A stretch of 48,167 nt of DNA, from NCBI GenBank assembly GCA_018969785.1, contig JAGWXR010000002.1:1-48167 (forward strand). Direction: 5' to 3'. Shown piece by piece: positions 4,125 to 39,013 of this stretch; the first letter of the stretch is position 1; each line of letters begins with the position of its first letter. A program made the translations under genes and the position numbers. Origin of the DNA: Alphaproteobacteria bacterium (GTDB lineage Bacteria > Pseudomonadota > Alphaproteobacteria > Micropepsales > Micropepsaceae). The notes beneath the pieces are model-generated. The model was not told the DNA's origin. It saw only the letters and a program-made list of their open reading frames with translations, and made no database searches.

Positions 4125-4895
4125 ATGTCACTGACGGGAAGGATTGCGCTGGTCACAGGTGCCAGCCGCGGGATCGGGCGGGCGATTGCCCTTGGCCTTG
4201 CGGCGGATGGTGCAGACGTCGCCGTCAATTATCGGCGCGAGCAGGACGAGGCCGAGCGCACGGCGGCTGAAATCCGGGTCCTGGGGCGGCGGGCGATCGT
4301 GGTGCAGGCATCGGTCGATGATGTCGAGGCCTGCGGGCGCATGGTCGAAGCCGTGGGGTCGGCGCTGGGGCCGGTGTCGATCCTCGTCAACAATGCCGGG
4401 ATTGCAAGCCGGGGCATGACGGTTGCCGATACGGATCCTGCGGAAATGCAGCGCGTGATCGGCGTGCATGCGCTGGCGCCTTTCTACATGTCCAGGCTGG
4501 TCCTGCCGCAGATGAGGCAGCAGAAGCGGGGCGACATCATCATGATCTCGAGCGTGGCCACACTGGGGTTTGCGGCGCGGGGTGCGCCCTACAACATGGG
4601 AAAGGCCGCGCTTGAGGCGCTGGCATTCACGCTGGCCAAGGAAGAGCGGCCCCACAATATCCGCGTCAACGTTGTGGCGCCGCCGCTGACCGATACCGAC
4701 ATGGGGCAGCGCCTCGCCAGGTCGCGCGGCGTGCAGCAGATCCATGAGCTGGATGCGAATTCACCCTTCGGTCATGTCTGTGCGCCTGAAGACATCGCCA
4801 ATGTGGTCCGCTTCCTGGTTTCGGATCGCAACTCGTATGTGTCGGGTGAGAAGATCTCGGTCCATGGCGCTGCAGACCGTGCGGGATTTGCCTGA
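4125..4895 (+). CDS. Short-chain dehydrogenase/reductase (3-oxoacyl-ACP reductase-like)
   Basis: A 256-residue NAD(P)-dependent SDR. It has the glycine-rich nucleotide motif TGASRGIG at residues 11-18, NNAG in the fourth strand, ISSVAT carrying the catalytic serine, and APYNMGKAALEAL carrying the YxxxK pair. The arginine in NYRREQDE just after the second strand suggests NADP preference. The C-terminal GEKISVHGA resembles the VDGG end of FabG-like enzymes. The ATG at 4125 is preceded by AGGAGAGAG, and the 27 residues available further upstream do not look like protein. It lies 58 bases after the acyl-CoA dehydrogenase, so a joint role in acyl or polyhydroxyalkanoate metabolism is plausible but not shown. 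Confidence 0.92.
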   Translation: MSLTGRIALVTGASRGIGRAIALGLAADGADVAVNYRREQDEAERTAAEIRVLGRRAIVVQASVDDVEACGRMVEAVGSALGPVSILVNNAGIASRGMTVADTDPAEMQRVIGVHALAPFYMSRLVLPQMRQQKRGDIIMISSVATLGFAARGAPYNMGKAALEALAFTLAKEERPHNIRVNVVAPPLTDTDMGQRLARSRGVQQIHELDANSPFGHVCAPEDIANVVRFLVSDRNSYVSGEKISVHGAADRAGFA

Positions 4896-5101
4896 GGCTG
4901 CGGTGGCGATTCGCGCTGATTCGCGCGTTTTGATCCGCGCGGTGTCGCCGGCAGCACCGGCAACTGCAATTGTTCTGTGTGCTGACGATTGCACGGATGT
5001 CTTTATTTTCAACGGTTCCGTGACGGCGTGTCTTTCGTGCATCACCTGTCGTGACACGAGATGTTGCGTAGCATGCGCAAAGGCACCAATATGTAGCTAT
5101 C

Positions 5102-5143
5102 TGAAGGCGCGCGGTGCGCTTTCACCCGTAACGAAGGAGTTAC
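5102..5143 (+). promoter_or_regulatory. Paired leader hairpins before the histone-like peptide; second one presents the SD
   Basis: Two stem-loops sit directly before the 35-codon gene. The first pairs 5102-5110 with 5116-5124 (nine pairs, one G-U). The second pairs GTAAC at 5128-5132 with GTTAC at 5139-5143. Its six-base loop GAAGGA, together with the next G, forms the AAGGAG ribosome-binding sequence (5134-5139). The ribosome site is thus held in a hairpin loop five bases before the ATG at 5148. The pairing is read directly; a regulatory effect on translation is inference. Confidence 0.45.
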
Positions 5144-5147
5144 TGAC

Positions 5148-5255
5148 ATGCCAATGGTAGCGAAGAAGAAGGCGAAGAAGCCGGCAGCGAAGACCGCGAC
5201 GAAGGCTGCTGCGAAGCCGAAGGCCGCCGTCAAGAAGGCCGCGAAGAAGAAGTAA
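5148..5255 (+). CDS. 35-residue lysine/alanine-rich histone H1-like peptide
   Basis: A very short gene: MPMVAKKKAKKPAAKTATKA followed by AAKPKAAVKKAAKKK and a TAA stop. By count 14 of 35 residues are lysine and 12 are alanine, with two internal prolines. This is the composition of the C-terminal tail of eukaryotic histone H1 and of bacterial H1-like proteins such as chlamydial Hc1/Hc2 and BpH1. Such tails bind DNA or RNA without sequence specificity and compact the nucleoid. A good SD (AAGGAG at 5134-5139) lies eight bases before the ATG. No promoter is certain. It stands alone between the SDR and a structured intergenic region. Nucleoid or ribosome association is inference from composition only. 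Confidence 0.7.
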   Translation: MPMVAKKKAKKPAAKTATKAAAKPKAAVKKAAKKK

Positions 5256-5280
5256 TTCCCATGTGCAGCCCCATGCGGGC

Positions 5281-5400
5281 TGCATGATGGAGGCGGAACC
5301 GGGACCCTGTTGGGGTCTTTAGGGGCGCCCTCCAGGGTTCAACCGGGCGTGCAACTCCCTCTGGAGCGGGTTGCGCGCCCGGTTTGCGTTTGGGCGGGTG
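5281..5400 (+). ncRNA. Candidate small RNA or processed 3' UTR: two adjacent strong hairpins
   Basis: Downstream of the histone-like gene are two consecutive stem-loops. Hairpin A spans 5289-5333: GGAGGCG pairs with CGCCCTCC (one bulged C), and GACCC/GGGTC (5303-5307 with 5313-5317) closes an inner five-base loop. Hairpin B spans 5341-5384: a 17-pair arm (5341-5357 with 5368-5384, two G-U wobbles) with a ten-base loop containing CCTCTGG. Only a weak T stretch follows, so B could be a stabilising 3' end or a terminator for the histone-like mRNA. CU-rich unpaired segments could act as anti-SD sequences. No known RNA family was recognised. Strand is assumed from the neighbouring gene. Confidence 0.4.
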
Positions 5401-5686: not shown

Positions 5687-5962
5687 GTGGCTTTGCTGGA
5701 CATCAACACGGTGGAAGATTTCGAGGGTGAGGCCAAGGCCGGCAAGCCGCAGGCCCTGTACCAGCTGGGGCTCTGCTACTCGACGGGGCAGGGCGTGGAG
5801 ATGGACCTCGTCCGTGCGCACAAGTATTTCAACCTTGCCGCCATGAAGGGCGTCTCGGAGGCGCGGCTGTGGCGCGCCGAGCTTGCGCAGCAGATGTCCT
5901 CGAACGACATCGCCGAGGCGCAGCGGCTGGCGCGGCTCTGGCTGCAGGAAACCGCGCACTAG
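5687..5962 (+). CDS. Small Sel1/TPR-like repeat protein
   Basis: A 91-residue soluble protein with about one and a half Sel1-like repeats. Residues 16-53 read AKAGKPQALYQLGLCYSTGQ, then GVEMDLVRAHKYFNLAAM, the classic AxxGxxxAxxxLGxxYxxGxGVxxDxxxAxxxxxxAA pattern. A helical tail follows. Sel1 repeats form alpha-solenoids that bind other proteins; no partner is evident and there is no signal peptide. It starts with GTG at 5687, preceded by GGGGAG (5672-5677). The product is close in length to other single-domain Sel1 proteins. A hairpin and T-run terminator follow 24 bases after the stop, so the gene is probably monocistronic. Confidence 0.85.
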   Translation: MALLDINTVEDFEGEAKAGKPQALYQLGLCYSTGQGVEMDLVRAHKYFNLAAMKGVSEARLWRAELAQQMSSNDIAEAQRLARLWLQETAH

Positions 5963-7953: not shown

Positions 7954-10284
7954 CTAGTTGCTGCGGCGCTTCTTCTTTTTCTTCTTCTTCTTGGTCGGCT
8001 TGGTTGCCGTCTTCTTCTTCGTCGGCTTGGCTGCGACCTCGTCGTCATCGTAAACAGGCGATGAAGCCACGATGGATTTTGCCGGAGCCTGCGGTGATGC
8101 GACAGCGGCCGCCGCTGTGGCGGTGGTGGCGGCTGCTGCCCCCGGGGGAGAGGAGGAGGTTGCGGTCGAGGAGAATTGAGCGCCGTTGGACGCCACCTCG
8201 GTAAAGCCGCCGCGGCGCAGGTCGTTCAGCACCCCGAACGGCACAGGCCGGCCAGCCAGGACGGCGCGGTAGACCTGGGTGTTCTCGAGGACACGCTGGA
8301 CGTAGTTGCGGGTCTCGCTGAAGGGGATGCGCTCGATCCAGTCGAGGGCGTCGGCGCTGGCGTTCCGGGGGTCGCCGTAGGTGCCGATCCACTGGTTGCT
8401 GCGCCCGCCGCCGGCGTTGTAGGCCGCGATCGAAAGGATGTAGGAGCCGGCGAAGTCAGCAAGGAGGTCAGAGACGTGCGCCATGCCCAGTTGCAGGTTC
8501 GTCGAGGGCGTGAACAGGTCCGCCTTGCCCCCATAGGGGATGGAGTGGCGGCGCGCTGTCAGGCTTGCGGTCGCCGGCATCAGCTGCATCAGGCCCCGTG
8601 CGCCTGCGCCTGACTGGGCTTCTGGGTCGAACTCGCTTTCCTGGCGGGTCAGGCCCATGATCAGCGCGCTTTCGGGAACGGTCCCGTTGCCTCGCCACGC
8701 GGGGAGCGAAATCGTCGGATAGGCAATGTCCAGCACCGGCAGGTTCTTCTGGATCCCCCGCTTGGCAACACGCAGCGCGAGGGCGGGCTGGTTCAACTGC
8801 CTGAGATACTCGACAAGGAACACGTACTGGTCCCGGTCGGAGAAGTTTTCGGCTGCCGCCAGCGCAAAGGTGCGCAAGAGGCCCTCGGAGCCGACATCCG
8901 CCAGGGCGTGCATGGCCTGCACCAGTCCCTGCTCCCTGAATGACTGGCGCGATCCGGATGTCCCGCGCTGGGACGGAGGGTCGATGTTGGCCTTGGGGTT
9001 CAGCGTCGCCGCCGCAACCTGGCCATAGAAGGTCATCGGGAACTGGGCTGCTGCATTGAACTGGCGCGTCGCCTCGGCGCTGCGGCCCTGCTTCTCGGCG
9101 GCGCGGCCGGCCCAGTAGTGGCCACGCGCGGCGCTGATCGGGGCCGTCACCGCCTCGCGCAGGCGCACGAAATGATCATAGGCCGTGTCGGGCTTGTTCA
9201 GGTATCTCAGCGCAATCCAGCCCGCGAGGAACTCTGCCTCGGCGTAGCTGATGACTGCGTCCTTGCGGATCGCGTGGGTCGAGGCGATCTGGTAGGCCTG
9301 CTGGGGATTGCCTTCATCGAGGGCTTCGCGCGCCTGGTAGTTCCGCTCGGTCCACCATTCCTCGGCCGAGGGGGCCGGCCCGTCCAGGTTCGCCGCAGAC
9401 TGCAGCAGGAGCGGGCGCGCGTCTGCGTCCTTGTCGCGCTTGCGGAGCCAGCGGGCGCGGTCGAACAGGAGGCCGGCGTCCTGCTGGAGGTCCGCCTTCA
9501 CCCGGCCATAGGCTGCGTCGGCATCGCGGGTGGCCTGGCGCAGCTTGATGCGGGCCTCGATCATGGCTTCGACATCTGCCGGCAACCAGTTCGCCATGGC
9601 ATTGGCCTGGCCGTATTCGTTTGCCCAGACAAGGCGGCTGGCACGCTTCCTGTGCTCATCGGCGGTGAGATGGTTGCCGTATTTCGACGACAGCACGGAA
9701 ATGCGGTCGAGCGTGAAGTTGCCTTCGATCCAGCCACGTCGCAGCCATGTGCGTGCCGCGGTATCCTGGCCCTTGCGCAGGTAGGCATCTCCCAGCTTGA
9801 ACATGCCCTCGCCAGACACGGGTTCGCGACCCTGGAACCAGTCGATCACGTCCGATGCGGCCATGGCGTCGGCCGGCATGGCTTCCTCGGCGCGAGCCTG
9901 AAGTCCGCGCTGGTTGGGCCAGTCGCGGTGCGTGGCAATGAAGCGGCTGATTTCGGTGAAGGGTGCTCCGTTGTCCTTGGTGACGAAGCACCTCCAGAGG
10001 ACCAGATCACGTGCGGGCGCGTTCGAAATGCCGGCTGCTATCTCGCGGGCCTTGTCCCAGTCCTTGCGGTCTGCGGCATCGAAGGCGCGGTCCAGCGTCG
10101 ACAGGTCGGACGCCGAGAGAAACTGCGCGTGGGGGCGGATATTGCGCGTGCCGTCATCGTCATAGACCGGCGACATGGTCTGGGCCTGTACGAGGCCCGC
10201 TCCCAGGATGCCCAGTGTCAGTGCCGTCGTCATGCGCCAGCAGAAACGCGTCCAGACTTTTCGGGGCTCAAATCTCAAGTTCAA
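7954..10284 (-). CDS. slt: Soluble lytic murein transglycosylase with polylysine C-terminal tail
   Basis: Cleaves the MurNAc-GlcNAc bond of peptidoglycan in the periplasm, leaving 1,6-anhydro ends. The 776-residue protein has a signal peptide (residues about 18-35), a long alpha-helical superhelix of the Slt70 U-domain type, and a C-terminal SLT domain. In the SLT domain GLTRQESEFDP carries the catalytic glutamate (residue 549), followed by GARGLMQLMPATA and ILSIAAYNAGGGRSNQW. After the domain comes an Ala/Thr/Pro-rich linker and a basic tail with eight consecutive lysines (765-772). The motif SPVYDDD occurs at residues 38-44, just after the signal peptide, and again at 742-748. The start is TTG at 10284 preceded by AGGA; ATG at 10233 is an alternative. 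Confidence 0.93.
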   Translation of the reverse strand: MNLRFEPRKVWTRFCWRMTTALTLGILGAGLVQAQTMSPVYDDDGTRNIRPHAQFLSASDLSTLDRAFDAADRKDWDKAREIAAGISNAPARDLVLWRCFVTKDNGAPFTEISRFIATHRDWPNQRGLQARAEEAMPADAMAASDVIDWFQGREPVSGEGMFKLGDAYLRKGQDTAARTWLRRGWIEGNFTLDRISVLSSKYGNHLTADEHRKRASRLVWANEYGQANAMANWLPADVEAMIEARIKLRQATRDADAAYGRVKADLQQDAGLLFDRARWLRKRDKDADARPLLLQSAANLDGPAPSAEEWWTERNYQAREALDEGNPQQAYQIASTHAIRKDAVISYAEAEFLAGWIALRYLNKPDTAYDHFVRLREAVTAPISAARGHYWAGRAAEKQGRSAEATRQFNAAAQFPMTFYGQVAAATLNPKANIDPPSQRGTSGSRQSFREQGLVQAMHALADVGSEGLLRTFALAAAENFSDRDQYVFLVEYLRQLNQPALALRVAKRGIQKNLPVLDIAYPTISLPAWRGNGTVPESALIMGLTRQESEFDPEAQSGAGARGLMQLMPATASLTARRHSIPYGGKADLFTPSTNLQLGMAHVSDLLADFAGSYILSIAAYNAGGGRSNQWIGTYGDPRNASADALDWIERIPFSETRNYVQRVLENTQVYRAVLAGRPVPFGVLNDLRRGGFTEVASNGAQFSSTATSSSPPGAAAATTATAAAAVASPQAPAKSIVASSPVYDDDEVAAKPTKKKTATKPTKKKKKKKKRRSN

Positions 10285-38294: not shown

Positions 38295-38398
38295 GGTGCA
38301 GGCCGTCCTGTCCGGTGCCGACGTGGTGGTTGGCGCATTGACATCGAGCGGTGCCTGCACCAGAAGTCCGTTCCATTAGCACAGATTGGGACGCACGG

Positions 38399-39013
38399 AT
38401 GCCCCAGAACCTGAGATATCCCCTCATCGCCCTTGTGGTTTGCCTTGTGCTCCTGCTGGGCCTGCTGTTCACCGGATCCGGTGGCCCGCGGAACAAGGCG
38501 GCTCCGGTGACCGCGTGGGGCGGACCCGAGATCGCCTCGTTTTCCCTGATCGACCAGGCAGGTGTGCCGATCAGCAAGAAGGACGTGCTTGGCAAGCCTG
38601 CCGTGCTGTTCTTCGGCTTCACCTATTGTCCCGATGTGTGCCCGACCACGCTTGCGTCGATGACGTCCTACCTGAAGCAGCTCGGTCCCGATGCCGACCG
38701 GATCGGGGCCTTCTTCGTGAGCGTTGATCCCGAGCGCGACACGCCCAAGGTGCTTGCCAGCTATCTTGCCTCGTTCGATCCGCGCATTCGTGGTGTTACG
38801 GGAAAGCCGGAAGAAATTGCAAAGCTGACAAAGTCGCTCGGGATCTACTTCAAGAAAGTCGATGCGGGCGGTGGATCCTATACGGTGGATCACAGTGCGC
38901 TGATCGTGCAGCTGGACTCGCAGGGGCGTTTCTTCGGCACGATCGCGTATGAGGAAGACAGGCAGGCCGCGCTCGACAAGCTCCGGCGGCTTGCGCGTGA
39001 AGGCTATCGCTGA
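38399..39013 (+). CDS. SCO1/SenC-family copper chaperone
   Basis: Delivers copper to the CuA centre of cytochrome c oxidase or acts as a thiol reductase. The 204-residue protein has an N-terminal membrane anchor (RYPLIALVVCLVLLLGLLFT) and a thioredoxin-like domain. That domain has FFGFTYCPDVCPTTLASMTS (the copper CxxxC), FFVSVDPERDTPKVLASYLA, and VDHSALIVQLDSQGRF with the ligand histidine. It faces the periplasm. The hydrolase gene follows after three bases, so they are cotranscribed. No cytochrome oxidase genes are present in the window. Confidence 0.94.
   Translation: MPQNLRYPLIALVVCLVLLLGLLFTGSGGPRNKAAPVTAWGGPEIASFSLIDQAGVPISKKDVLGKPAVLFFGFTYCPDVCPTTLASMTSYLKQLGPDADRIGAFFVSVDPERDTPKVLASYLASFDPRIRGVTGKPEEIAKLTKSLGIYFKKVDAGGGSYTVDHSALIVQLDSQGRFFGTIAYEEDRQAALDKLRRLAREGYR

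What the first reader, a model, noticed from the sequence alone, without database searches (positions are those of the whole stretch)
5102..5255. 35-residue histone H1-like peptide whose ribosome site is displayed in a leader hairpin
The peptide is 40% lysine and 34% alanine (14 and 12 of 35), like an isolated histone H1 tail, and is easily missed because it is so short. Two stem-loops precede it, and the second holds AAGGAG in its loop five bases before the ATG. A basic peptide with a structured leader could be regulated by nucleic-acid binding, perhaps its own. The sequence facts are direct; the regulation is speculation.
Basis: partly seen in the sequence, partly recalled or inferred. Interest (0 to 1): 0.6.

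Follow-up and report, generated by a model that had tools for sequence, protein, structure and literature searches.

The report
Tiny conserved histone-H1-tail gene with leader hairpin
A 35-residue lysine/alanine peptide that gene finders would easily skip is a real, conserved bacterial gene with its own promoter and a conserved RNA hairpin at the start of its message; it is a very short form of a known type of DNA-coating protein, but the hairpin said to display the ribosome site is not conserved.

Summary
The 35-aa ORF (5148-5255; 14 Lys, 12 Ala) is a real gene. All 11 available genomes of the genus (uncultivated Alphaproteobacteria related to Parvibaculum) carry a 29-36 aa ortholog at the same place (gatB - peptide - Sel1 - enoyl-CoA hydratase - slt - dapA). 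It is under purifying selection (pN 0.15, pS 0.48). At the same locus other lineages carry longer KA-rich proteins (35-196 aa); one Parvibaculum ortholog passes the Pfam HC2 (histone H1-like) cut-off. So this is a naturally short, free H1-tail-like protein.

Of the two hairpins, the first (5103-5123) is conserved with compensatory changes in the genus. It lies just behind a conserved promoter (TTGCGT-17-CAATAT), so it probably forms the 5' end of the mRNA. The second, said to display AAGGAG, is not conserved and behaves like chance.

Best explanation: an abundant nucleic-acid-compacting (H1-like) peptide whose mRNA carries a 5'-terminal stem-loop, most likely for stability. Autoregulation is untested. 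Unexpectedly, a cluster of GANTC (CcrM methylation) sites lies about 235-245 nt upstream of the ATG in every genus member and near there in two sister groups, despite about 3-fold GANTC avoidance. This suggests cell-cycle-linked control (inference).

The parts
4908..4923 (+). Tandem GANTC sites (GATTCG-CGCT-GATTCG), candidate CcrM/GcrA regulatory element
   Evidence: Two GANTC sites at about -243/-233 from the ATG in 11/11 genus loci. The only exact GATTCGN{3,5}GATTCG in the 2.1-Mb own assembly. GANTC avoided overall: 49 observed, about 158 expected in the window. Position-specific excess in three clades. Function inferred.
5064..5092 (+). Predicted sigma-70-type promoter TTGCGT-N17-CAATAT
   Evidence: TTGCG invariant and (C)AATAT in 9/11 genus loci, with constant spacing. 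Equivalent TTGC..N17..CATATT in sister groups and Parvibaculum. TSS not measured, predicted near 5098-5100. The generic scan did not call it.
5103..5123 (+). Conserved 5'-leader hairpin GAAGGCGC-GCGGU-GCGCUUUC (8 bp)
   Evidence: 94% of cells paired, 8 double-sided compensatory cells over 3 pairs, 0/500 shuffles reach the covariation score; consensus-fold z -7.6.
5128..5143 (+).
   Evidence: 61% of cells paired, same as shuffles (62%) and a slide of -3 (59%).
5134..5139 (+). Shine-Dalgarno AAGGAG
   Evidence: AGGAG is present upstream of the ATG in all 11 genus loci, with a short, somewhat variable spacer.
5148..5255 (+). 35-aa KA-rich H1-tail-like protein MPMVAKKKAKKPAAKTATKAAAKPKAAVKKAAKKK
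   Evidence: Orthologs in 11/11 genus genomes with an invariant KAAAKPKAA core; synteny; pN<pS in 55/55 pairs.
5259..5290 (+). Strong hairpin right after the stop codon, possible transcript 3' end
   Evidence: Folds in the window; GC-rich hairpins follow the stop in several relatives; no U-run, so terminator role uncertain.
5687..5962 (+). Downstream Sel1-repeat protein (91 aa), synteny marker, not part of the transcript unit claimed
   Evidence: Pfam Sel1; 79-95% identity in the genus.

Best explanation
The locus encodes a very short, free-standing histone-H1-like (Hc2/AlgP-tail-like) cationic disordered protein. It is transcribed from its own sigma-70 promoter (5064-5092) into a message that begins almost directly with a stable hairpin (5103-5123), followed by a single-stranded conserved Shine-Dalgarno site. 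The protein most likely binds nucleic acid (DNA first; RNA or polyphosphate possible) by charge and is needed in quantity. The 5'-terminal hairpin most likely keeps the mRNA long-lived by hindering 5'-end-dependent RNase E decay, without masking the ribosome site. Shown: gene conservation, positional orthology with longer H1-like proteins, conserved promoter motif, covarying hairpin. Inferred: expression, DNA binding, mRNA stabilisation.
For: Orthologs of 29-36 aa in all 11 genus genomes. Shared order peptide - Sel1 - ECH - slt - dapA. pN 0.15 vs pS 0.48, pN below pS in 55/55 pairs. Positional orthologs of 35-196 aa in related clades, rich in K, A, P and T, likewise upstream of Sel1 and, where checked, next to gatB. 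A Parvibaculum ortholog scores 55.4 bits on Pfam HC2, cut-off 40. The hairpin covaries and sits about 10 nt after a conserved -10 element. A leader stem of different sequence folds at the same place in the sister clade. KPAA-repeat tails of AlgP bind DNA (PMC9239181), and Hc2-type proteins vary in length by repeat number (PMC2848022). Stem-loops and 5' UTR features protect mRNAs such as ompA (PMC7509114).
Against: No expression or binding data. The 35-aa protein itself matches no Pfam or NCBIfam model. HC2 matches are compositional and can arise from any KA-rich sequence. The hairpin sequence (loop GNGGU, GGUGCG strand) is also conserved, which stability alone would not require and which hints at a specific binder.
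Confidence: 0.6

Rival explanations
1. The conserved hairpin is a regulatory binding site (for the peptide itself, another RNA-binding protein or an sRNA) that tunes translation or decay, i.e. autoregulation.
For: The loop and 3' strand (GGUGCG) are invariant in the genus beyond what pairing needs. A lysine-rich peptide could bind RNA; Chlamydia Hc2 binds RNA and represses translation (PMC2848022).
Against: The hairpin does not overlap the RBS. Outside the genus the stem is replaced by one of different sequence. A generic K-rich peptide has no evident sequence specificity.
Confidence: 0.22
2. The ribosome site is displayed in the loop of the second hairpin, which controls translation.
For: The hairpin folds in the window.
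Against: Not conserved; 61% of cells pair, equal to shuffles and nearly equal to a slide of -3.
Confidence: 0.03
3. The ORF is a decaying remnant of a longer H1-like gene and has little function.
For: Related lineages have mostly longer proteins (up to 196 aa) at the locus, so length may have shrunk here.
Against: Start, RBS, frame and an invariant KAAAKPKAA core persist in 11/11 genomes with pN well below pS, and promoter and leader are conserved too.
Confidence: 0.05
4. The peptide mainly organises polyphosphate or PHA granules (AlgP/PhaF-tail-like) rather than the nucleoid.
For: AlgP, an H1-like KPAA-repeat protein, positions polyP granules (PMC9239181).
Against: AlgP has an additional N-terminal helical domain that this peptide lacks; a free tail cannot obviously tether two bodies.
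Confidence: 0.1

Closest known systems
Hc2 / Bordetella BpH1 / NCBIfam hist_H1_lk_Burk (Pfam HC2, PF07382)
   Same: Lys/Ala-rich low-complexity basic protein with strong length variation; the longer orthologs at the same locus match PF07382, one above the curated cut-off.
   Different: 29-36 aa instead of about 165-237 (Hc2) or 182-206 (BpH1); no pentamer repeat array; no model match itself; different phylum or class and no demonstrated homology beyond composition.
AlgP/PhaF C-terminal KPAA tail (Pseudomonas)
   Same: Similar composition; tail peptides bind DNA.
   Different: There the tail is attached to an N-terminal domain; here it stands alone.
ompA-type 5'-terminal stabilising stem-loop
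   Same: Stem-loop near the predicted mRNA 5' end, RBS left free.
   Different: Stabilisation not measured; loop and one strand are conserved in sequence.

Membership tests
Histone H1-like Hc2 family (PF07382 / NF038053) | Profile match over the curated cut-off | tested here: not met
   No match for the 35-aa protein; a Parvibaculum positional ortholog (162 aa) passes PF07382, 55.4 vs 40 bits, but not NF038053, 48.5 vs 80.
Histone H1-like Hc2 family (PF07382 / NF038053) | Lys/Ala-rich composition | tested here: met
   40% K, 34% A.
Histone H1-like Hc2 family (PF07382 / NF038053) | Array of lysine-rich pentamer repeats | tested here: not met
   No repeat array visible in the 29-36 aa forms.
Histone H1-like Hc2 family (PF07382 / NF038053) | DNA binding and nucleoid compaction | not testable with these tools
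   Needs binding or imaging assays.
5'-terminal stabilising stem-loop (ompA-like) | Conserved stem within a few nt of the TSS | tested here: inconclusive
   Stem conserved; TSS only predicted from a conserved promoter motif.
5'-terminal stabilising stem-loop (ompA-like) | Lengthens mRNA half-life | not testable with these tools
   Needs a half-life measurement.
CcrM/GcrA-controlled promoter | GANTC sites in the promoter region, conserved | tested here: inconclusive
   A GANTC cluster is conserved at a fixed distance in 11/11, 9/9 and 5/5 loci of three clades, but it lies about 140 nt or more upstream of the predicted -35, outside a core promoter.
CcrM/GcrA-controlled promoter | GcrA and CcrM present in the organism | tested here: inconclusive
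   GcrA in 11/11 genomes, the window's own included; CcrM-type RAMA domain in 7/11, including all 6 high-quality genomes, but not found in the window's own incomplete assembly.
CcrM/GcrA-controlled promoter | Cell-cycle- or methylation-dependent transcription | not testable with these tools
   Needs synchronised or CcrM-depleted cells.

The most novel reading that the evidence does not exclude
A free 29-36 aa H1-tail peptide acts as a replication-timed chromosome-compacting protein: its transcription is gated by CcrM methylation through a conserved GANTC cluster and its mRNA is controlled by a sequence-specific 5' hairpin, giving Alphaproteobacteria a cell-cycle-linked linker-histone analogue.
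Probability: 0.12. Interest if true: 0.75.

Novelty: new variant of a known kind. Interest (0 to 1): 0.42.

Why it matters
It shows that H1-tail-like proteins can be retained as free peptides of about 30 residues, below the size at which genes are usually annotated, at a locus where relatives keep forms up to six times longer. That is a natural series for testing how tail length relates to DNA compaction. The conserved methylation-site cluster upstream offers a testable link between a nucleoid protein and the alphaproteobacterial cell cycle.

Tried and rejected
Rfam search of the window: no family. Fixed-hexamer promoter scan: no call; the promoter was recognised only by conservation. Peptide-alignment scan of named genomes: no confirmed relatives, probably because the peptide is short and low-complexity; solved by scanning with the neighbouring Sel1 protein. 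SD hairpin as a regulatory element: rejected. RNA model R1 finds only the genus, whose sequences it was built from; outside it the leader hairpin has another sequence. Antisense ORFs across the gene: not pursued, because the sense frame shows selection. Extra structure at -232..-92 gives a weak consensus fold (z -4.8, energy only -4.8 kcal/mol), not claimed. No structure prediction was run because the peptide is expected to be disordered.

Full report
Observation. The ORF at 5148-5255 encodes MPMVAKKKAKKPAAKTATKAAAKPKAAVKKAAKKK: 35 aa, 14 Lys, 12 Ala. It is the only ATG ORF of 30 aa or more with at least 30% Lys in the window, and none appeared in 30 third-order Markov simulations. Both described hairpins fold. 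The SD loop is GAAGGA, with the last G of AAGGAG in the stem, and AAGGAG ends 8 nt before the ATG, not five.

It is a gene. All 11 genomes of the genus have one copy, 29-36 aa, with an invariant KAAAKPKAA core. Downstream order is constant where contigs allow: Sel1-repeat protein, enoyl-CoA hydratase, slt, dapA. Codon-aligned pairs give pN 0.15 and pS 0.48, with pN below pS in 55 of 55 pairs, and length differences are whole codons. The named records are uncultivated Alphaproteobacteria, one labelled Rhodobiaceae.

Its relatives. At the matching place in related lineages there is again a Lys/Ala-rich ORF: 35-116 aa in one sister group, 56-68 aa in another genus of the family (for example strain SO-S41), and 105-181 aa in Parvibaculum and its kin. 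The gene upstream was compared in the genus, the sister group, the family genus and Parvibaculum and is the same protein of about 490-510 aa throughout; from its sequence I recognise GatB (name by knowledge). In the window and its nearest relative an SDR gene lies immediately upstream instead. A Parvibaculum ortholog passes the Pfam HC2 cut-off (55.4 vs 40 bits) and shorter ones match weakly; the 29-36 aa forms match nothing. Such matches depend on composition, so the claim here is positional orthology plus 'works like', not proven membership.

The leader. TTGCG...N17...(C)AATAT lies at constant spacing upstream in the genus, and a TTGC-N17-CATATT version occurs in the sister group and most Parvibaculum loci. 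The first hairpin starts about 10 nt after this -10 element, so it would form the very 5' end of the mRNA (TSS predicted, not measured). It is supported by compensatory changes: 94% of cells paired, 8 double-change cells over 3 pairs, 0/500 shuffles reach the covariation score, and it is clearly better than any slid version (consensus z -7.6). In the sister group a stem of different sequence folds at the same place. The second hairpin is not conserved: 61% paired against 62% in shuffles and 59% at a slide of -3. The covariation support comes from 11 related sequences and so from few independent events.

Upstream control region. In all 11 genus loci two GANTC sites lie near -243 and -233 from the ATG. 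GANTC is otherwise avoided (49 seen, about 158 expected by composition in the window). The fixed region -275..-220 holds 29 sites in 11 genus loci (random windows mean 1.2), 15 in 9 sister loci (1.1) and 17 in 5 loci of another genus (0.6), each with 0/2000 random sets reaching it; Parvibaculum shows no excess. The region was chosen after seeing the sites, and the loci are related, so these counts are not independent tests. GcrA is in 11/11 genomes and the CcrM-type RAMA domain in 7/11, including all six high-quality ones but not the window's own incomplete assembly. The pair stays with this gene even where an SDR gene separates it from gatB, so it probably belongs to this gene. The pair is far from the predicted promoter, so the mechanism is unclear.

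Mechanism. Most likely the product is a nucleic-acid-binding cationic peptide: KPAA-repeat tails bind DNA (PMC9239181) and Hc2 and BpH1 vary in length by lysine-rich repeats (PMC2848022). The hairpin leaves the SD site free and sits at the presumed 5' end, which fits a stabilising stem-loop of the ompA kind (PMC7509114). The invariant loop and GGUGCG strand leave room for a specific binder, including autoregulation.

Verdict. Real, overlooked and ordinary in kind (H1-like small basic protein), but a distinctive variant by its size, conserved leader and upstream methylation-site cluster.

Noticed in passing
window 4908-4923; same offset in L042-L051: Tandem GATTC (CcrM) sites at a fixed distance upstream of the H1-like gene, with GANTC clusters near the same place in two sister clades, despite GANTC avoidance elsewhere.
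   Followed up: partly
G002:C17:38162-38177: Another exact GATTCG-N4-GATTCG pair lies about 150 bp upstream of the gcrA match (38313-38744) in one genus member, hinting at a shared regulatory motif.
   Followed up: no
L043 about -177, L056 about -191, L052 about -180 from the ATG: A palindrome TCCGTANACGGA (and close variants) recurs upstream of the gene in several clades; degenerate in the window (about 4974-4985). Unknown factor site or RNA stem.
   Followed up: partly
window 4125-4895 and L042: An SDR oxidoreductase gene sits immediately upstream of the peptide gene in the window genome and its nearest relative; in most other loci checked gatB is the neighbour.
   Followed up: partly
window 7954-10284 (-): The slt-like lytic transglycosylase ends in a lysine-rich tail (PTKKKTATKPTKKKKKKKKRRSN), also K-rich in some relatives.
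   Followed up: no
window 5687-5962: A 91-aa Sel1-repeat protein is unusually conserved (79-95% identity in the genus); only its presence, not its function, was examined.
   Followed up: partly
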